Positions 1 through 43,196 of a stretch of 64,000 nucleotides of DNA are shown here, piece by piece. Position 1 is the stretch's first letter. The number at the start of each line of letters is the position of its first letter. The stretch covers positions 1 to 64,000 of the forward strand of contig DULK01000093.1 in the NCBI GenBank assembly GCA_012840385.1, written 5' to 3'. This stretch comes from Syntrophomonadaceae bacterium (GTDB taxonomy: Bacteria > Bacillota > DSM-12270 > Thermacetogeniales > Thermacetogeniaceae). The notes below the pieces were generated by a model that worked only from the letters and a program-made list of their open reading frames with translations, was not told the origin of the DNA and did not search any database. Position numbers and translations under genes: made by a program.

Positions 1-210
1 AGACGGCAGCCGACCGGCTCCTATGACGCCGTCCATGGCGCATAGTCGCCTATCAAATTCCTGTTTCGCTTCGGCTGCCGTTAGCTGCTCCTTCGTCAAG
101 GGCGAGTAACAACCTCCGTAGGTCGCTACGCCAGCAAGGATAAACCGCTTTTTCGTTTCTCTGCTGGTGCCGCCGGAGGCGGCGTGATCGTGTGTCTCAA
201 AATATAAATC
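1..210 (+). repeat. Large palindromic repeat, copy R1 (cut by window start)
   Basis: This is the right part of a dispersed palindromic repeat also found near 7.6, 17.0, 26.9, 33.9, 36.9, 37.75 and 42.9 kb. It contains the central complementary pair CGGCAGCCGA (near base 4) and TCGGCTGCCG (near base 71). An inner hairpin CTATGACGCC/GGCGCATAG lies between them. The right arm ends in AGCAAGGATAAACC and a small GCCGCC–GGA–GGCGGC hairpin. The left arm is missing because the window starts inside the element. It has no plausible open reading frame. Confidence 0.85.
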
Positions 211-7545: not shown

Positions 7546-7668
7546 ATGCTCGGAATTATAAAGCAAAAGCTGATAATGCAACAGAGTTTCGGTGAGTGCT
7601 GGGTCGCTGCGCCAGCAAGGATAAACCGCTTTTTCGTTCCTCTGTTGGTGCCGCCGGAGGCAGCGTGA
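7546..7668 (+). pseudogene. Short reading frame running into a repeat
   Basis: A 40-codon frame has a strong AAGGAGA site nine bases before its ATG. It starts MLGIIKQKLIMQQSFGE, but from about 7602 it is made of repeat sequence. It may be the 5' stub of a gene cut by the repeat, or chance. I recognise nothing in it. The rest of 7327–7900 holds no other gene. Confidence 0.25.
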
Positions 7669-7690
7669 TGGTCTGCCCTGAAAATACATC
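7602..7690 (+). repeat. Palindromic repeat, right-end fragment R2
   Basis: Only the right end of the dispersed repeat is present: GGTCGCTGCGCCAGCAAGG, the TAAACCGC stretch, the CCGCCGGAGGC hairpin and the terminal TCTGCCCTGAAAAT. It lies between prmC and the permease gene. Confidence 0.8.
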
Positions 7691-9181: not shown

Positions 9182-9572
9182 CAGAAACGGCCTGCGGCGT
9201 CGTCCGCTTCTCCTGCCTGTAAAAACTCACCATATTTGCCAGAAAAATATCTTTCTTGGGTGTCCGAATTAAATTCGGTTAATGCGAAGAATCGGTGGCT
9301 CTCAAGTTCGCCTGGACCGGTTTGGTCAATATTTTACACACTTGTTGGTGTGCTTAACACACGGGGTACCAAGAAAATTCACAGGGAAGCCAACCCCTAT
9401 TTGAGTAATTAACGATACGAAACGAACAGGCCCAAACTGTTAAAGCTGCCTCAGGGGGTGGGAATGAACCGGTGAAGCTGTTGAGGATTCGTCTTTGGGA
9501 GGGAAATCGGCATTCGGGTGGCAGTTCTTCTTAATGGTTCAAACTTTCCCAAAAAAGGTTAAGAAAGGGGTA
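9182..9572. other. Long leader before the first BCCT gene
   Basis: About 390 bases without a convincing gene. A frame joined to the transporter is open from 9495, but its extra N-terminus (MGGKSAFGWQFF...) is unlike BCCT proteins and lacks a ribosome site. Short inverted repeats occur (GAATTAAATTC at 9268–9278; ACACAC/GTGTG around 9340). I recognise no riboswitch class. Confidence 0.45.
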
Positions 9573-11102
9573 ATGCAATTAATGACAAGCGGCGCTGGCT
9601 CGACAAATCGTACCGTTCTGTACATTTCCTCGATCATCGTCCTGTTGTTCGTACTTTTCGGTATGTTCCTGCCTGAGGGAATGGGTCAAGTCGTTAATGC
9701 CGTGTTCGACTTTTTAACTGCCGATTTCGGCTGGCTTTACCTGCTGGCGGTCGCCATTTTTATAGCCTTCGCCTTCGGGATCGCCTTCAGCCGCTATGGG
9801 CAGGTTAAGCTGGGGAAAGACGACGACCGGCCCGAGTTCAGCAACTTCCAGTGGTTTGCCATGCTGTTCGGCGGCGGAATGGGTATCGGTCTCGTGTTCT
9901 GGTCGATTGCCGAGCCGATCTTCCACTACATGGCGCCTCCCTTTGGCAAAGGCGGCACTGCCGAAGCCATGCACACGGCCATGCGGATCGTGTTCTTCCA
10001 CTGGGGCATCCACGCCTGGGTTATCTTCGCCATTGGCGGTCTGGCCCTGGCATACTTCCAGTTCCGCAAAGGGTTGCCCTTTCTGATCAGTTCCGCTTTC
10101 TACCCGCTGCTTGGTGACCGGATTTACGGCCCCATCGGCAAGGCCATAGATATTCTGTCGGTGTTTGCCACAGTCTTCGGCGTGGCCACGAGTCTGGGCC
10201 TCGGCTCCAGCCAGATAGCCACCGGTATCCAGTATATCTGGGGAGTCAAGGCGACTCCTGCTACCATTTCTGTGATCATTGCGGTAATGACCGCCATCTT
10301 CACCATGGCCACGATCTCCGGCTTGAAAAAGGCCATGCAGGCTGTTGCCAATTTTAAGGTCTGGCTTTCAATCGCCTTCATGGTATTTATCTTTATCTTC
10401 GGCGGCATGGTCTTTATCCTGAACAACTTCACCGATGCCCTTGGTGGCTACCTGCAAAACTTTATCGGGCAGACCCTGTGGATGGGCAACCCCGACTGGC
10501 TGAAGGGCTGGACCGTGTTCTACTGGGCATGGTGGATTGCCTGGGCTCCGTTCGTCGGGCAATTTGTTGCCAGGGTTTCCAAAGGCCGTACCATCCGGGA
10601 GTTCGTGCTGGCGGTGACCCTGCTTCCCACCGGCTTCTCCTTCATCTGGCTGGCGATTTACGGCGGTGCGGCTTTTCACCTTGATAAGCTGGCCAATGGT
10701 GCCATCCAGGCCGCCGTCAATACGGACTACACCACCGCCCTGTTCGTCACCCTGAAGCAGTTGCCGCTGTACTCAATTACCGCTCCCTTAGCCATTCTCC
10801 TGATCGTAGCCTGCTTTGTGGGGGCGGCGGATTCCGCAACCTTTGTGCTGGCCATGCTGACTTCAGGCGGCAACATGGACCCGGACAAGAAACTCCGCGG
10901 CTTCTGGGGTATCTTGCAGGGTGCCATCACCATCATCCTGATCCTGGCCAGCGGCACCACTGTGTTGAAAGCCTTGCAGACGGCCTCCATTGCCTCTGCC
11001 TTCCCCTTCATGTTGATCATGCTGGCCATGTGCTACAGCATTTACCGCGCCCTCCGGCAGGATCATGCTCCGGAGCTGAAAGCCGGGGAATTCAATCCCT
11101 AA
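9573..11102 (+). CDS. BCCT-family betaine/choline/carnitine transporter 1
   Basis: A 509-residue secondary transporter with 12 predicted membrane segments. The BCCT signatures are clear: the glycine-rich GGGMGIGLVFWSIAEP of TM3 and the Trp-rich WTVFYWAWWIAWAPFVGQF of TM8 with KGRTIREF after it. The family imports quaternary ammonium compounds. It probably supplies the substrate for the methyltransferase genes that follow. ATG 9573 is close to AAGAAAGG; ATG 9582 is an alternative. The cytoplasmic tails are short, unlike osmosensing BetP types, which fits catabolic uptake. Confidence 0.92.
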   Translation: MQLMTSGAGSTNRTVLYISSIIVLLFVLFGMFLPEGMGQVVNAVFDFLTADFGWLYLLAVAIFIAFAFGIAFSRYGQVKLGKDDDRPEFSNFQWFAMLFGGGMGIGLVFWSIAEPIFHYMAPPFGKGGTAEAMHTAMRIVFFHWGIHAWVIFAIGGLALAYFQFRKGLPFLISSAFYPLLGDRIYGPIGKAIDILSVFATVFGVATSLGLGSSQIATGIQYIWGVKATPATISVIIAVMTAIFTMATISGLKKAMQAVANFKVWLSIAFMVFIFIFGGMVFILNNFTDALGGYLQNFIGQTLWMGNPDWLKGWTVFYWAWWIAWAPFVGQFVARVSKGRTIREFVLAVTLLPTGFSFIWLAIYGGAAFHLDKLANGAIQAAVNTDYTTALFVTLKQLPLYSITAPLAILLIVACFVGAADSATFVLAMLTSGGNMDPDKKLRGFWGILQGAITIILILASGTTVLKALQTASIASAFPFMLIMLAMCYSIYRALRQDHAPELKAGEFNP

Positions 11103-14404: not shown

Positions 14405-14510
14405 TTACTCTTTACAGTCCCCGGGCTGCAATTGCCAAAGATGGTAAACACCTACGCTGGTTTGTTCATTTGAAACCCGGCTTATAAAATAAGAGCGAGG
14501 AGAGTTGATG

Positions 14511-16022
14511 ATGGCTCTGGTACCCGAAGACCTGCCCGGTGATATCAAAAACAAAAGCTTGGATAAAAAGGTGTTGGGAATATCCCTTTTGATGCTTCTG
14601 CCCTTTGTAATCTGGGGGGTGGTTGCTTCAAGGAGCTTTGAGAAGGCACTCAATAAATGCCTGGCTTTTTTCACCACCTACTTTGATTGGAGCTACCTGC
14701 TGATCGCCGCGGGGTTCGTGATTTTTGCCGTGTGGATGGCATTCGGCCGGTTCGGCAGCAGGAAATTAGGAAACCCGGAGGACAAGCCAGAGTACTCCCT
14801 GCCGGAATGGTACGCCATGCTGTTCAGTGTGGGAATGGGTATCGGGGTGCTCTTCTGGGGTGTGGCGGAGCCGCTTTACCACTACATAGCTCCTCCTTTA
14901 GGGTCGCCCAACACGCCGGAAGCGGCGGATCTGGCCATGCGCTACACCTTTTTCCACTGGGGTCTGCACCCCTGGGCTATTTATGCCATAGTGGGGTTGA
15001 CCATAGGCTACTTCACCTATAAGTATGATCTCCCCTGTTCCGTCAGCACGACCCTCTACCCCCTGCTCAAGGAAAAAACCTGGGGAACATTGGGAAAGGT
15101 TATCGACGCCTTCGCAGTCTTCGCAACCATCGGCGGGGTGGTCACTTCCATAGGGCTGGGAGCCCTGCAGATCAACAGCGGTTTGAACTTGGTGTTTTCA
15201 GTTCCTGCCAACAAAAATGTGCAGTTAATTATCGTCGTCCTTTCCACGCTACTGTTCACCTATTCCGCCATCCGAGGAGTCAGCCGCGGCATCAAGATCT
15301 TCTCCGAGGCGAGTTTCTATATCGGGATCGCCCTGATGGTCTTCCTCTTTATATTTGGCCCCGCCAGGTTTATCCTGCGGTTGTTCACCCAGTCGGTGGG
15401 GTCCTACATTCAGAACATCATCCCCATGTCCTTTTGGACCGATGCGGTGCGGGGCTCCGGTTGGGTGGGAAGCTGGACGGTCTTCTACTGGGCGTGGTGG
15501 ATAGCCTGGGCACCTTTCGTAGGGCCCTTTTTTGCCAAGATATCCAAGGGCCGCACCATCAGGGAGTTCATGATCGGTGTTCTGTTTTTCCCGACGGTGT
15601 TTGACATGATCTGGTTCGGGGTTTTCGGCGGCAGCGGCCTGTATTTTGAGATCTTCCGCCATGCCGGCCTCGCCGCCGCCGTCCAGAAAGATGTGGCCAC
15701 CTCCATCTTCCTGCTGCTGAAGCACTATCCCCTGTTTACCGTGACCGCCATTGCAACCGTGATTGCCGCTGCCTCGTTCTACATCAATTCCGCCGATGCG
15801 GCGGTTTTCACTGCCGGGATGCTCAGTGAAAAGGGCAATCTGGAGCCGCGCCATACGACCAAGGTGATCTGGGGAATTATTAGCGGGCTGGCCGCTGCCG
15901 TGCTGTTGTATACCGGCGGGTTGACCGGTCTGCAGACGGCCTCGATCGTGGCGGCGTTTCCCTTCATGCTGATCATGGTGGCCATGTGCGTTTCCCTTGT
16001 GAAACTTCTGAACAGCGAGTGA
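14511..16022 (+). CDS. BCCT-family betaine/choline/carnitine transporter 2
   Basis: A 503-residue, 12-segment BCCT transporter, a diverged paralogue of the one at 9.6 kb. Signatures: SVGMGIGVLFWGVAEPLYHY in TM3 and WTVFYWAWWIAWAPFVGPF in TM8 followed by KGRTIREF. ATG 14511 follows AGGAGA by seven bases; TTG 14505 and ATG 14508 are in the same frame. With the first transporter it flanks the methyltransferase genes. The two may differ in substrate or affinity, or one may export the demethylated product; this is inference. Confidence 0.92.
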   Translation: MALVPEDLPGDIKNKSLDKKVLGISLLMLLPFVIWGVVASRSFEKALNKCLAFFTTYFDWSYLLIAAGFVIFAVWMAFGRFGSRKLGNPEDKPEYSLPEWYAMLFSVGMGIGVLFWGVAEPLYHYIAPPLGSPNTPEAADLAMRYTFFHWGLHPWAIYAIVGLTIGYFTYKYDLPCSVSTTLYPLLKEKTWGTLGKVIDAFAVFATIGGVVTSIGLGALQINSGLNLVFSVPANKNVQLIIVVLSTLLFTYSAIRGVSRGIKIFSEASFYIGIALMVFLFIFGPARFILRLFTQSVGSYIQNIIPMSFWTDAVRGSGWVGSWTVFYWAWWIAWAPFVGPFFAKISKGRTIREFMIGVLFFPTVFDMIWFGVFGGSGLYFEIFRHAGLAAAVQKDVATSIFLLLKHYPLFTVTAIATVIAAASFYINSADAAVFTAGMLSEKGNLEPRHTTKVIWGIISGLAAAVLLYTGGLTGLQTASIVAAFPFMLIMVAMCVSLVKLLNSE

Positions 16023-16972: not shown

Positions 16973-17255
16973 TCTGCCCCGAAAATATGCTCCGGTTTAT
17001 CCTTGCGCTTGCTCCCGGACTCCGGTTGAACTCGCCCTAAGACTCGTCGCAGACGGCAGCCGACCGGCTCCTATGACGCCGTCCATGGCGCAGAGTCGCC
17101 TAGCTCAACATCCTGTTTCGCTTCGGCTGCCGTTAGCTGCTCCTTCGTCAAGGGCGAGTAACAACCTCCGTAGGTCGCTGCGCCAGCAAGGATAAACCGC
17201 TTTTTTGTTCCTCTGCTGGTGCCGCCGGAGGCGGCGTGGAGGTCTGTTTTGGAAA
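16973..17255 (+). repeat. Large palindromic repeat, copy R3 (nearly complete)
   Basis: Order: TCTGCCCC end, TCCGGTTTATCCTTGCGC, an ACTCGCCCTAAGACTCG arm, central CGGCAGCCGA, an inner CTATGACGCC hairpin, then the complementary right half TCGGCTGCCG, AGGGCGAGTAAC, GCAAGGATAAACC and the GCCGCC–GGCGGC hairpin. Left and right halves are imperfect reverse complements. It occupies the gap between the terC terminator and the regulator gene. Confidence 0.85.
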
Positions 17256-19355: not shown

Positions 19356-19706
19356 CCCGGCACAACCTCCTTTTACGGGGCACCAGCTATACCTCTCACA
19401 TTTTATTCTTCTCGGCCCGTACCAGGACTCCTTCTCCGCCGGTTGAGATCTCGAGATCTTTTGCGGTGCAAACATTTATGTCCCCCTCGATTACACCAAA
19501 AAGCATGAAAATACTCCGGCGGATGAACTTGCTGCATATAGGGAAGACCTGCACCTCATGTCAGACTGGGGAATAACCGTCAGCCGTACATATTTTCATA
19601 AAAATTGTCGCATGCGAGAAGGAACCGGACTTAATATAACGAATCATAAATCTCATTATATGCCTGTTACCGCTACTTCATACCCCGCCCCGGCAAGAGG
19701 CAGGCG
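19356..19706. other. Divergent gap with no gene seen
   Basis: This gap between the minus-strand corrinoid gene and the permease fragment should hold the corrinoid gene's promoter. I find no clear promoter pair, no coding frame with a ribosome site, and no remains of the missing permease N-terminus. Confidence 0.45.
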
Positions 19707-20210
19707 ATGCGTTACACCCTCTCAAGATGGGTGCGGCGGGCTCCCAGGCCGGTTCTCTCCGCCGCCGTATTTTTTGCAATAGCCTTTGTTATGAACAATT
19801 CAGGGCTTCAGAACGTGGGTGGGGCATGGAAGGTTGTGGATCACAGTTCCAACATGATCTGGGTTCTCGCCCGGGGTTCGGCCCTGGCCTTCGGCGCCTT
19901 TTATCCCTTCATCAGCGCCTTTATGGGACTGTTCGGCGGCTTTATCAGCGGCAGCGAGGCATCCACCATTGCCATGTTCACGAAGTACCACCTCCTGACC
20001 TCCAGGATGCTCAACGTCAACGCCCTGGTGGTGACCGCAGCAACCGCCATCGGCGGCGGCCTGGCCAGCGTCATCTCTCCGGCCAAGCTCCAGAACGCCG
20101 CGGCGACTATCGACGCCCTGGGAATCGAGAGCAGGGTGATCAGGACGGCATTTCTGATCTCGGTGCTAATTACCGTTGTTGCGGCCATGATCGCCCTTAT
20201 AGTGGCATGA
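19707..20210 (+). pseudogene. C-terminal fragment of an L-lactate permease family protein
   Basis: The 167 residues match the last third of LctP/LldP lactate permeases. Features: FGGFISGSEASTIAMF resembles the family's glycine-rich GSxxSxxxxF motif, GGGLASVISPAKLQNAAATI follows, and the protein ends in a hydrophobic helix. Intact permeases are about 500–560 residues. The first two thirds are absent upstream. The frame is clean with three or four membrane segments and an ATG, so it may be expressed, but it is most simply a decayed transporter gene. Confidence 0.6.
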
Positions 20211-26805: not shown

Positions 26806-27085
26806 ATACGCTCACGCCGTCCATGCGGCACCATCGAAAGAATGAAAATAGTGGTTTATCCTTGCAGGCGCAGCGACCTTACGGAGGTTGTTACCTCGCC
26901 CTTGACGAGGAGCAGCTAACGGCAGCCGAATCGAAACAGGAAGTTGAGATAGGCGACTATGCGCCATGGACGGCGTCATAGGAGCCGGTCGGCTGCCGTC
27001 TGCGACGAGTCTTAGGGCGAGTTCAACCGGAGTCCGGGAGCAAGCGCAAGGATAAACCGGAACATATTACAGGGCAGGTTTTTAA
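26806..27085 (-). repeat. Large palindromic repeat, copy R4, inside the atp cluster
   Basis: This copy is inverted relative to R3. Reading the plus strand, it runs from CTCACGCCGTCCATGCGG through GTTTATCCTTGC, GTTACCTCGCCCTTGACG, AACGGCAGCCGA, an inner hairpin (GACTATGCGCC...GGCGTCATAG), TCGGCTGCCGTC, AGGGCGAGTTCAACC and GCAAGGATAAACCGG to ACAGGGCAGG. It fills almost the whole 346-base gap between atpI and atpB. Confidence 0.85.
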
Positions 27086-30851: not shown

Positions 30852-30866
30852 AAAAGTGAAGTCAGA

Positions 30867-30905
30867 CGCACATGCCGCCCAGGCGGCACTATCAGAATGC
30901 AGGTG
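30867..30905 (+). repeat. Small fragment related to the palindromic repeat
   Basis: The stretch ACATGCCGCCCAGGCGGCAC resembles the left outer segment of repeat R8 at 42742. It lies in the atpA–atpG gap, which shows no gene and no terminator. Confidence 0.5.
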
Positions 30906-33737: not shown

Positions 33738-33747
33738 TAAGTGCCGG

Positions 33748-34008
33748 GATCGCCTTAAGATTCGTCGCAGACGGCAGCCGAGCGGCTCCTATGACGACCT
33801 CCGTGGCGCATAGTCGCCTAGCTCCCCCCGCACTCAATGGCACTTTCTCTCTGTAACGAGATAATTAATGACAGCCAGTTCCGAATGAACGTTATAGGTA
33901 GAATTCCCTTTGAGTGCGGGATCGCTTCGGCTGTCGTTAGCTGCTCCTCGTCAAGGGCGAGGTAACAACCTCCGTAAAGTCGCTGCGGCTGCAAGGATAA
34001 GCCACTGT
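33748..34008 (+). repeat. Large palindromic repeat, copy R5, with nested element
   Basis: Left arm GATTCGTCGCAGACGGCAGC, an inner hairpin (CTATGACGACC...TGGCGCATAG) and right arm TTCGGCTGTCGTTAGCTGC, AAGGGCGAGGTAACAACC, GCAAGGATAAGCC. A 95-bp element occupies the apex (33826–33920). It lies between the convergent atpC and feoA genes and may act as a two-way terminator, since neither has another visible one. Confidence 0.85.
33826..33920. mobile_element. 95-bp MITE-like element, copy A
   Basis: Ends are the inverted pair CCCCGCACTCAA and TTGAGTGCGGG. The body is AT-rich and non-coding (GGCACTTTCTCT, then CGAATGAACGTTATAG). A second, diverged copy sits at the same place in repeat R6. It is too short to code for a transposase, so any mobility would need one encoded elsewhere. 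Confidence 0.65.
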
Positions 34009-34010
34009 TA

Positions 34011-34334
34011 TTATTCTGAGGAGAATGAATCCCGGTGATTTAACCACCGCCGCCACAAACCGTGCCGGTAACGATGACGGCCGCAGGCCGCACCCGCCCC
34101 GGGTTCTTTAGCCACCTCGATGCTTTGAGCGGTTTCTGTATCGACGGCAAGCTGGGTGTGGCCCACCTGAATGACGTAGGAAGGAAACTTTTGGAGCAGC
34201 CTAATCGGGAGCCCGGGGTAAAGCCCCAGGGCTAATAACTTCCTGACCTTGTCGGGATTGCTGTTGGTCAGGGAGAAAATTCTGCCGTGCTGGCCTACCT
34301 CCATGTTGGTAAGTGTTACCACATTAACCGGCAT
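34011..34334 (-). CDS. feoA: FeoA-domain protein
   Basis: A 107-residue small SH3-like protein; FeoA partners FeoB in ferrous iron uptake on the cytoplasmic side. Residues 1–75 carry the family pattern (NMEVGQHGRIFSL, LLALGLYPGLPIRLLQ, VIQVGHTQLAVDTETAQSIEV). The last 30 or so residues are an unusual basic, His/Arg-rich tail (GRHRYRHGLWRRWLNHRD) whose end abuts repeat R5. It overlaps the Cys-rich gene by 11 bases. Confidence 0.88.
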   Translation of the reverse strand: MPVNVVTLTNMEVGQHGRIFSLTNSNPDKVRKLLALGLYPGLPIRLLQKFPSYVIQVGHTQLAVDTETAQSIEVAKEPGAGAACGRHRYRHGLWRRWLNHRDSFSSE

Positions 34335-36626: not shown

Positions 36627-36759
36627 ATTATAATTATAGTGGTCGCCAACCACCGGGTCAAGGGCAGACAAGCAGACAAGGGGACGGTTCTCTTGTCTAA
36701 AATACAGCACCAGGGCTTGCTCAGACCGGTTCTAAGGCAGCTGCGGAACTGTGTAACGA

Positions 36760-37160
36760 AACCTGAACATTTTCAGGGCAGACGATCACGCCGCCTCCGG
36801 CGGCACCAACAGAGGATGAAAATCTGGTTATCCTTGCGCTTGCTCCCGGACTCCGGTTTAACTCGCCCTAAAACTCGTCGCAGACGGCAGCCGACCGCCT
36901 CCTACGCTGCATCCATGCAGCGGAGTCGGCTACTTTCCCCGCACTCAATAGCACTTTCTCTATAATTAGGTGATTTAATAACAATCAATCTCGAATGAAC
37001 ATTAAAGGAAAGGATTTCCTTTGAGTGCGGGGTCAGTTCGGCTGCCGTTAGCTGCTCCTTCGTTAAGGGCGAGTAACAACCTCCGTAGGTCGCGGCGCCT
37101 GCAAGGATAACCGGAATGTATTTACAAGGCAAGATAAACCTGAACATTTCCAGGGCAGGA
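36760..37160 (+). repeat. Large palindromic repeat, copy R6 (fullest), with nested element
   Basis: Both outer ends carry CTGAACATTTTCAGGGCAG-like segments. Then come the CCGCCTCCGGCGG hairpin, TCTGGTTATCCTTGCGC, AACTCGCCCTAAAACTCG, CGGCAGCCGA, an inner CTGCATCCATGCAG hairpin, the 95-bp nested element, TCGGCTGCCGTTAGC, AAGGGCGAGTAAC and GCAAGGATAACCGG. It lies between the divergent feoB and fur genes. Around 36655–36760 a short extra non-coding stretch (AGACAAGCAGACAAGGGG) precedes it. Confidence 0.88.
36937..37032. mobile_element. 96-bp MITE-like element, copy B
   Basis: Perfect 12-bp inverted ends CCCCGCACTCAA / TTGAGTGCGGGG enclose an AT-rich body similar to copy A (GCACTTTCTCT, CGAATGAACATTAAAGG). 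It occupies the apex of repeat R6, where R8 has only about 18 other bases. Confidence 0.7.
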
Positions 37161-37255
37161 AAAGGGATGATTTTGGGGAATACATAGTTGTTTCCCTATA
37201 TTCATATGATAGGTTGTGGCGGTGTATGGTAATTAATAGAATAAGAGGCGGGATT

Positions 37256-37724: not shown

Positions 37725-37810
37725 CCCGCTCCCGGCGCTCCGGTTGAACTCGACCAAAGACTCGTTGCAGACGGCAGCCGACCGGCCCGGTGATGCCTGA
37801 GCGGCATGTA
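37725..37810 (+). repeat. Palindromic repeat, left-half fragment R7
   Basis: Only the left arm is present: CCCGCTCCCGG, TCCGGTTGAACTCGACC, AGACTCGTTGCAGACGGCAG, CCGACCGG. It lies just after fur and before a terminator. Confidence 0.8.
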
Positions 37811-42739: not shown

Positions 42740-43090
42740 CACTCATGCCGCCCAGGCGGCACCAACAAGGATAACCAGAATGTATTTCCAGGGTAGACCA
42801 CCACGCCGCCTCCGGTGACACCAGCAGAGGATGAAATCTGGTTATCCTTGCGCTTGCTCCCGGACTCCGGTTTAACTCGCCCTAAAACTCGTCGCAGACG
42901 GCAGCCGACCGCCTCCTACGCTGCATCCATGCAGCGGAGTCGGCTGCTTCGGCATCCATGCCTCAGTTCGGCTGCCGTTAGCTGCTCCTTCGTTAAGGGC
43001 GAGTAACAACCTCCGTAGATCGCGGCGCCTGCAAGGATAACCAGAATGTATTTACAAGGCAGGATAAACCTGAACATATTTCCAGGGCAG
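42740..43090 (+). repeat. Large palindromic repeat, copy R8, with a partial extra left end
   Basis: A short piece (ATGCCGCCCAGGCGGC, AAGGATAACCAGAATG) precedes a full unit: CTGGTTATCCTTGC (left) and GCAAGGATAACCAG (right) are perfect reverse complements. ACTCGCCCT/AGGGCGAGT and CGGCAGCCG/CGGCTGCCG pair inside. No nested element is present, so this copy shows the empty apex. A TGCCGGG–TTG–CCCGGCA hairpin follows at 43101–43117. Confidence 0.88.
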
Positions 43091-43196
43091 TAACTTTAAG
43101 TGCCGGGTTGCCCGGCATTCCTTAGTCCCTTCGTCGGTGCACTCTCATACTGCTGTTGTCGAACCAATGGTGTTCATGGGTGGCCAAAATATATTA

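What the first reader, a model, noticed from the sequence alone, without database searches (positions are those of the whole stretch)
16973..17255. Family of large imperfect palindromic repeats, eight copies or fragments in 64 kb
Copies or fragments lie at 1–210, 7602–7690, 16973–17255, 26806–27085, 33748–34008, 36760–37160, 37725–37810 and 42740–43090, plus a small piece at 30867. Each full copy is a long inverted repeat: outer GGTTATCCTTGC/GCAAGGATAACC, then ACTCGCCCT/AGGGCGAGT, then CGGCAGCCGA/TCGGCTGCCG, with a small hairpin at the apex. The apical hairpin differs between subtypes (CTATGACGCC/GGCGCATAG versus CTGCATCCATGCAG) while pairing is kept, which hints at selection for structure. 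It could be a non-autonomous mobile element or a structured RNA family. I do not recognise it as a described family.
Basis: partly seen in the sequence, partly recalled or inferred. Interest (0 to 1): 0.72.

Follow-up and report, generated by a model that had tools for sequence, protein, structure and literature searches.

The report
Mobile repeats carrying TwoAYGGAY RNA
The palindromic repeats are copies of a known but unexplained RNA motif (TwoAYGGAY). Comparison with related genomes shows that the motif is the core of a small jumping DNA element; in one related lineage it lands on gene-end terminator hairpins and duplicates the whole hairpin.

Summary
The repeats are real. All eight copies or fragments in the window lie between genes. 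Two copies match Rfam RF01731 (TwoAYGGAY) above its curated threshold, so the family is described, although its function is unknown. The genome (draft, Thermacetogenium-like Clostridia) holds about 67 core-bearing loci; some sites filled here are empty or shortened in same-genus genomes.

New evidence: (1) many clostridial lineages amplified their own copies, up to 97% alike within a genome; (2) pairing extends about 50 nt beyond the Rfam model on each side; (3) in distant genome G129 the element is a 264-bp unit (CAGA…TCTG), and 23 of 25 sites carry a locus-specific terminator-like hairpin (17–27 bp) duplicated on both sides, with a single terminator at one such site in four relatives; (4) every core tested has at least two CsrA-type GGA motifs, and 39 of 40 genomes with the motif encode csrA.

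Not shown: expression, CsrA binding, the transposase, or target duplication in the window's own genome. Stems show no G·U excess over A·C, arguing against RNA-only selection.

The parts
1..195 (-). TwoAYGGAY element, subtype I, truncated by the contig start
7602..7690 (-). Fragment: flanking hairpin module plus outer arm, ending where a type-B insert begins (CCAGCACTCACC)
16973..17255 (-). Full element, subtype I (core RF01731 match at 17017-17173, minus strand, 43.1 bits)
   Evidence: the same site in G001 holds a copy with two extra palindromic inserts
26806..27085 (+). Full element, subtype I; absent from the orthologous site in G002
30864..30894 (.). Isolated flanking hairpin module (GCCGCC..GGCGGC), no core
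33738..34017 (-). Element, subtype I, with apical hairpin 1 replaced by a type-A insert; no intact copy at the orthologous sites of G001 and G002
33826..33920 (-). Type-A palindromic insert (CCCGCACTCAAAGG...CATTGAGTGCGGGG)
36769..37162 (-). Element, subtype II, with type-A insert; lies between feoB and a fur-family gene; absent from G002
36937..37032 (-). Type-A palindromic insert replacing the GGCATGGATGCC hairpin
37725..37800 (-). Fragment of the 3' half of the core
42740..43092 (-). Full element, subtype II (core RF01731 match at 42862-43018, minus strand, 47.5 bits), with a doubled outer module

Best explanation
The repeats are copies of a small non-autonomous mobile DNA element whose core is the Rfam motif TwoAYGGAY: a long, mostly paired nested stem ending in two hairpins that display A(N)GGA in their loops. 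Shown: membership of RF01731; high copy number; presence/absence differences between near relatives; separate amplification in many Clostridia; conserved pairing that extends beyond the Rfam model; and, in genome G129, exact insertion (ends CAGA...TCTG) at terminator-like hairpins with the whole hairpin duplicated. Inferred: an enzyme supplied in trans inserts the element at extruded hairpins or palindromes; in the window's genome it then diversified by nested insertion and exchange between copies, so that clean target duplications are no longer seen. Functional inference, about 0.35: the two hairpins bind CsrA when transcribed, so the element titrates or responds to CsrA.
For: Identity. Copy number about 67; at least 19 contig ends fall inside copies. 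Empty or shortened sites in G001/G002. Found in 40 of 300 genomes of the phylum; within-genome core identity averages 75%, between genomes 40%. Outer 50-nt flanks pair with their own partner: median -39.9 versus -17.4 kcal/mol swapped, own partner best in 27 of 34. 26 of 40 consensus pairs show compensatory change. G129: 168 end-motif matches versus 5 in the control; 23 of 25 sites flanked by the same locus-specific hairpin, alignment score median 18 versus 6.5 swapped; 17-27 bp, MFE median -12.7 versus -2.5 shuffled; a single terminator at one orthologous site in four relatives. Similar duplications in G246 and G251. CsrA: at least 2 A(N)GGANG motifs in 35 of 35 cores versus a mean of 0.5 shuffled; csrA in 39 of 40 motif-bearing genomes.
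Against: No locus-specific target duplication at 28 copies of the window's own genome, and the G129 end motif is not enriched in the window. Several 'empty' sites keep part of an outer arm, so some could be deletions rather than never-filled sites. No transposase or autonomous partner was identified; the RAYT-like gene is flanked by a different repeat. Stems show no G-U excess over A-C (21 versus 18; 12 versus 10), so RNA-level selection on the stems is not supported. The csrA association is only partly corrected for relatedness.
Confidence: 0.85

Rival explanations
1. It is primarily a cellular small RNA, a CsrA-sequestering sponge like CsrB/RsmZ, with many copies kept for function; the mobility is incidental.
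For: Both apical loops fit the CsrA consensus (RUACARGGAUGU, GGA in a hairpin loop; PMC4347634); every one of 35 diverse cores has at least two such motifs on one strand and almost none on the other; 39 of 40 motif-bearing genomes encode csrA versus 180 of 260 without it, Fisher p=2e-5, family level p=0.003. The same idea was proposed in PMC4333381.
Against: Tens of near-identical, polymorphic copies in both orientations, core-less forms that still carry target duplications, and no G-U excess look like a mobile element rather than a gene. No expression evidence is available.
Confidence: 0.3
2. A REP/BIME-type palindrome moved by a RAYT (Y1) transposase.
For: The genome and both same-genus genomes each have one 261-268 aa Y1_Tnp gene, and the repeat is palindromic and mosaic like BIMEs.
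Against: The RAYT genes are flanked by AGACAAGGGGACGGTTCT hairpins, not by this element; many relatives have the gene but no TwoAYGGAY match.
Confidence: 0.06
3. A cis-regulatory leader, as the Rfam type 'Cis-reg' suggests.
For: Rfam annotation; intergenic location.
Against: No consistent orientation: in 58 classifiable loci the downstream gene is on the same strand in 25 and opposite in 33; in the window several copies are antisense to both neighbours. The 2010 description left cis-regulation as 'n' (PMC2864571).
Confidence: 0.04
4. In the G129-type lineages the element is a MITE of an IS1202-group insertion sequence, whose target duplications are also unusually long (16-28 bp).
For: Target-duplication lengths 17-27 bp match the range given for the IS1202 group (PMC10132070).
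Against: No IS1202-like transposase or matching inverted repeats were examined; no end-motif pair 0.8-5 kb apart was seen among the listed matches. The IS1202 paper found no specific target for that group.
Confidence: 0.2
5. Copies are by-products of larger segmental duplications or chance palindromes.
For: None found.
Against: Flanks differ at every copy, and pattern counts exceed every shuffle.
Confidence: 0.01

Closest known systems
Rfam RF01731 TwoAYGGAY RNA (Weinberg et al. 2010, PMC2864571)
   Same: Same core: passes the gathering score, with two hairpins whose loops carry YGGAY-type sequence.
   Different: Described as a candidate structured RNA, probably RNA and not cis-regulatory, with no function. 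The papers that could be read do not mention its being a high-copy mobile repeat, its longer paired arms, its end motif, or the target duplication.
Bacterial MITEs, especially BOX, RUP and SPRITE of Streptococcus pneumoniae (PMC3049150, PMC10969869)
   Same: Short, intergenic, multi-copy, palindromic, modular, inserted into one another, transcript would be structured.
   Different: Carries a conserved two-hairpin GGA core shared across many clostridial families; in G129 the target is a terminator-like hairpin that is duplicated whole. No parent IS known.
REP/BIME with RAYT transposase (PMC2817692)
   Same: High-copy intergenic palindromes in mosaic arrays.
   Different: Not associated with the RAYT gene present in these genomes.
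IS1202 group of insertion sequences (PMC10132070)
   Same: Unusually long target duplications (16-28 bp).
   Different: The element is about 264 bp and non-coding; no transposase link tested; the IS1202 group has no known specific target.
CsrA-sequestering sRNAs (CsrB/C, RsmX/Y/Z)
   Same: GGA in hairpin loops matching the CsrA consensus; csrA present in the same genomes.
   Different: Dozens of mobile copies with only two strong hairpin sites each; expression and binding untested.

Membership tests
RF01731 TwoAYGGAY | Covariance-model score at or above the gathering score (43 bits) | tested here: met
   47.5 and 43.1 bits in the window; up to 55.9 bits elsewhere in the genome
RF01731 TwoAYGGAY | Two apical hairpins with AYGGAY-type loops on one strand | tested here: met
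   At least two A(N)GGANG motifs in 35 of 35 cores, 74 of 89 motif GGAs inside predicted hairpin loops; one subtype-I loop is shorter (AACAGGATGTT)
MITE | Short, non-coding, multi-copy, with terminal inverted repeats | tested here: met
   About 200-280 bp, about 67 loci, arms complementary; G129 ends CAGASTGTMGACAAA
MITE | Target-site duplication at copies of the window's own genome | tested here: not met
   0 of 28 copies exceed the swapped-flank 99% level; hence 'works like a MITE' here, and called a MITE-type element only in G129-like lineages
MITE | Target-site duplication in other lineages | tested here: met
   23 of 25 in G129; clear cases in G246 and G251
MITE | Cognate autonomous transposon with the same ends | tested here: inconclusive
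   No pair 0.8-5 kb apart among the listed matches in G129, but only 100 of 168 matches were listed
REP/BIME | Repeat flanks the RAYT gene | tested here: not met
   No significant element match at the three RAYT loci; a different repeat flanks the gene
CsrA-sequestering sRNA | GGA in hairpin loops matching the CsrA consensus | tested here: met
CsrA-sequestering sRNA | csrA gene in the same genome | tested here: met
   39 of 40 motif-bearing genomes
CsrA-sequestering sRNA | Transcribed and bound by CsrA | not testable with these tools
   needs RNA-seq and binding assays
Cis-regulatory leader RNA | Upstream of and co-oriented with a regulated gene | tested here: not met
   25 same versus 33 opposite
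IS1202 group | Target duplication of 16-28 bp | tested here: met
   17-27 bp in G129; not in the window's genome
IS1202 group | IS1202-type transposase and matching inverted repeats | not tested

The most novel reading that the evidence does not exclude
TwoAYGGAY is a family of non-autonomous transposons that recognises intrinsic-terminator stem-loops by their structure and duplicates the entire stem-loop, so that the target-duplication length is set by the hairpin. It carries a maintained pair of CsrA-binding hairpins, so each insertion places a terminator-flanked CsrA ligand at the end of a transcription unit.
Probability: 0.25. Interest if true: 0.85.

Novelty: new variant of a known kind. 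Interest (0 to 1): 0.62.

Why it matters
An RNA motif described in 2010 and held in Rfam with no known function is shown to be the core of a mobile element spread across many Clostridia. That changes how its covariation, copy number and 'cis-regulatory' label should be read, and its real boundaries are wider than the model. Duplication of a whole terminator-like hairpin at 23 of 25 sites in one genome is an unusual insertion signature that makes the target rule directly testable. If the GGA hairpins bind CsrA, mobile DNA would be dispersing ligands of a global regulator.

Tried and rejected
RAYT mobilisation: the RAYT loci carry a different repeat. Viral carriage: a core pattern found 0 matches in viral contigs. 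Cis-regulatory orientation: no consistent direction. A G-U versus A-C strand test was expected to support RNA-level selection but showed parity; a tRNA calibration of it failed because only 6 tRNAs were in hand, with no G-U or A-C pairs in their acceptor stems. Folding energy favours the motif strand (30 of 34), but since G-U counts are equal that difference comes from loops and mismatches, so it is weak evidence for RNA. Direct repeats flanking copies in the window's genome: none above the swapped control. Searches of the open library for the end motif found nothing.

Full report
OBSERVATION. Sequences written out in one orientation confirm the nested arms, the two apical subtypes and the fragments. 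Pattern counts for the inner and outer arms exceed every shuffle. All eight copies or fragments are intergenic: for example 16973-17255 lies between a terC-family and a pocR/araC-family gene, 36769-37162 between feoB and a fur-family gene, and 42740-43092 between a spoIID-domain gene and a PLP-enzyme gene.

IDENTITY. cmscan of the window against Rfam gives only two hits, both RF01731 TwoAYGGAY, both on these repeats and on the minus strand (47.5 and 43.1 bits, gathering score 43). The family was described in 2010 as probably RNA, not cis-regulatory, found in human gut, gamma-Proteobacteria and Clostridiales (PMC2864571). A later paper proposed that it binds CsrA (PMC4333381).

ORGANISM AND COPY NUMBER. 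The window is contig 87 of a 2.70-Mb draft genome. Named contigs bearing the core pattern are clostridial, including Clostridia isolates 25 and 27, DTU068, Syntrophaceticus sp. and Thermoanaerobacterales 50_218; G005 has the genome length I recall for Thermacetogenium phaeum DSM 12270 (2,939,057 bp; own knowledge). Merging the searches gives about 67 core-bearing loci in the genome, or 83 with outer-arm-only or unresolved loci. This may overcount slightly, because at least 19 contig ends fall inside copies, so some may be two halves of one copy. Same-genus genomes G001 and G002 have 23 and 18 Rfam-level hits.

PRESENCE/ABSENCE. G001 is about 97% and G002 about 91% identical to the window in shared DNA. 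At 26806 and 36769, G002 lacks the element, with only 7-10 bp between the flanking matches. At 33738 both relatives lack the intact element, and G001 keeps a short hairpin containing a core fragment. Of 13 further copies tested by joined-flank search, six show an empty or shortened site in at least one relative (L031, L043, L045, L060, L064, L151). Some keep a single outer arm, so loss by recombination is possible there. At 16973, G000 and G001 share flanks but carry different subfamily cores, and G001 has two extra inserts, which suggests exchange between copies. One locus (L068) has its two flanks on different contigs in both relatives: recombination or misassembly.

MOSAIC STRUCTURE. Three families of 91-102 nt palindromes occupy fixed positions in the element: type A (CCCCGCACTCAA..TTGAGTGCGGGG) in place of apical hairpin 1 in both subtypes, type B (CCCAGCACTCAC..GTGAGTGCTGGG) in place of CCTACGGAGG, and type C (CCCGGCACTCAA..TTGAGTGCCGGG) in place of CGGAGTCCGG or of the whole core. 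Core-less outer stems also occur (L175, L176, L177, L191). The genome is thus a system of nested palindromes whose tips can be exchanged.

BEYOND THE GENOME. RF01731 is detected in 40 of 300 genomes of the phylum, in 21 families (strict filters, few candidates scored per genome, so copy counts are lower bounds). Copies within a genome are alike (up to 97% in G129; mean 75%) and between genomes they are not (mean 40%), so each lineage has amplified its own family.

STRUCTURE. In 34 copies from different genomes the 50-nt flanks outside the Rfam model pair with each other (median -39.9 kcal/mol against -17.4 for swapped flanks; own partner best in 27 of 34), although their sequences are unrelated between lineages. 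In a 14-sequence alignment, 26 of 40 consensus pairs have compensatory changes. The structure is therefore larger than the Rfam model. The strand question is not settled: the motif strand folds more stably in 30 of 34, but in folds made without G-U pairs single mismatches inside helices are G-U 21 and A-C 18 (12 and 10 in 83 copies of the window's family). RNA-level selection on the stems should favour G-U; parity fits pairing kept or renewed at the DNA level.

INSERTION SIGNATURE. In G129 the unit has sharp ends: 168 matches to CAGANTGTNGACAAA against 5 for the reversed control, mostly in inverted pairs about 264 bp apart, with some 42-115 bp core-less forms. At 23 of 25 units a locus-specific stem-loop ends at the left boundary and is repeated at the right boundary (score median 18, swapped 6.5, swapped maximum 13). 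These duplicates are 17-27 bp and fold well (median -12.7 kcal/mol, shuffled -2.5); 13 of 20 have an A-rich stretch before the left copy and 16 of 20 a T-rich stretch after the right copy, as in intrinsic terminators. At the site of copy L249, four same-genus genomes lack the element and have one orthologous terminator hairpin. Similar duplications occur in G246 (3 of 3 copies) and G251 (2 copies), with shorter ones in G049 and G122. This is insertion with duplication of a terminator-like hairpin. It is not visible at 28 copies of the window's own genome, whose ends differ. The same mechanism there is an inference, and the alternative is spread by recombination among nested palindromes.

CSRA LINK. 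All 35 diverse cores have at least two A(N)GGANG motifs (mean 2.5, shuffled 0.5, complement 0.03), and 74 of 89 lie in predicted hairpin loops, matching the CsrA consensus and its structural preference (PMC4347634). csrA is present in 39 of 40 genomes with the motif and 180 of 260 without it (Fisher p=2e-5); at family level 21 of 21 motif families lie among 93 csrA families of 120 (p=0.003). The family count was read off the output by hand, and lifestyle is not controlled for. This supports but does not prove binding.

WHAT WAS EXCLUDED. The RAYT-like gene is bordered by another repeat. No matches to a core pattern occur in viral contigs. Orientation relative to genes is mixed (25 same, 33 opposite), which argues against a cis-acting leader.

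VERDICT. A known RNA motif, now seen as the core of a mobile element with an unusual target signature in at least one lineage. The membership claim RF01731 is firm. The claim that it is mobile is strong. The mechanism in the window's genome, the enzyme and the function are open.

Noticed in passing
G000:C101:29901-30239 (L144); window 36674-36691: A single RAYT-like Y1 transposase gene flanked by AGACAAGGGGACGGTTCT hairpins, a separate REP-like family; one exact copy of that hairpin arm lies in the window near feoB.
   Followed up: partly
L021, L051, L062, L139, L140, L142, L151, L178-L180; window 33826-33920 and 36937-37032: Three families of 91-102 nt palindromes (types A, B, C) with related ends (NGCACTCA) that replace hairpins of the element; type B also stands alone in another genus and sits in a different repeat.
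   Followed up: partly
L029, L038, L040, L055 (flanks): A further repeat, GTCTACCGGCGAGCGACCTATGGAAGGCCGGGTAACAGGACAGGCGAAGCGAGGATGACA, abuts many copies; it also carries GGA motifs.
   Followed up: no
G000:C104:22457-22647 (L147); G001:C19:14443-14599: A TwoAYGGAY copy lies a few hundred bases downstream of the csrA gene in both genomes; could be coincidence at this copy density.
   Followed up: no
window 19460-19935: About 475 bp present in the window genome is missing from G001 (31 bp between the flanking matches); not an element of this family.
   Followed up: no
L068 (G000:C28): The two flanks of this copy are on different contigs in both G001 and G002, each next to a copy: rearrangement between copies or misassembly.
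   Followed up: no
L288-L292 (G129): Core-less units of 42-115 bp; four of the five have duplicated hairpins at both ends, so the end motif alone may be mobile or they are internal deletions after insertion.
   Followed up: partly
L272 (G314): Next to the single terminator at the empty site is TTTCTGACTGTAGAAAAA, resembling the G129 end motif: possible remnant of an excised element.
   Followed up: no
window 9495-11102 and 14505-16022: Two BCCT-type transporter genes (choline/betaine/carnitine) about 5 kb apart share stretches of 75-79% identity; the first has a Pfam match, the second is inferred from that identity.
   Followed up: no
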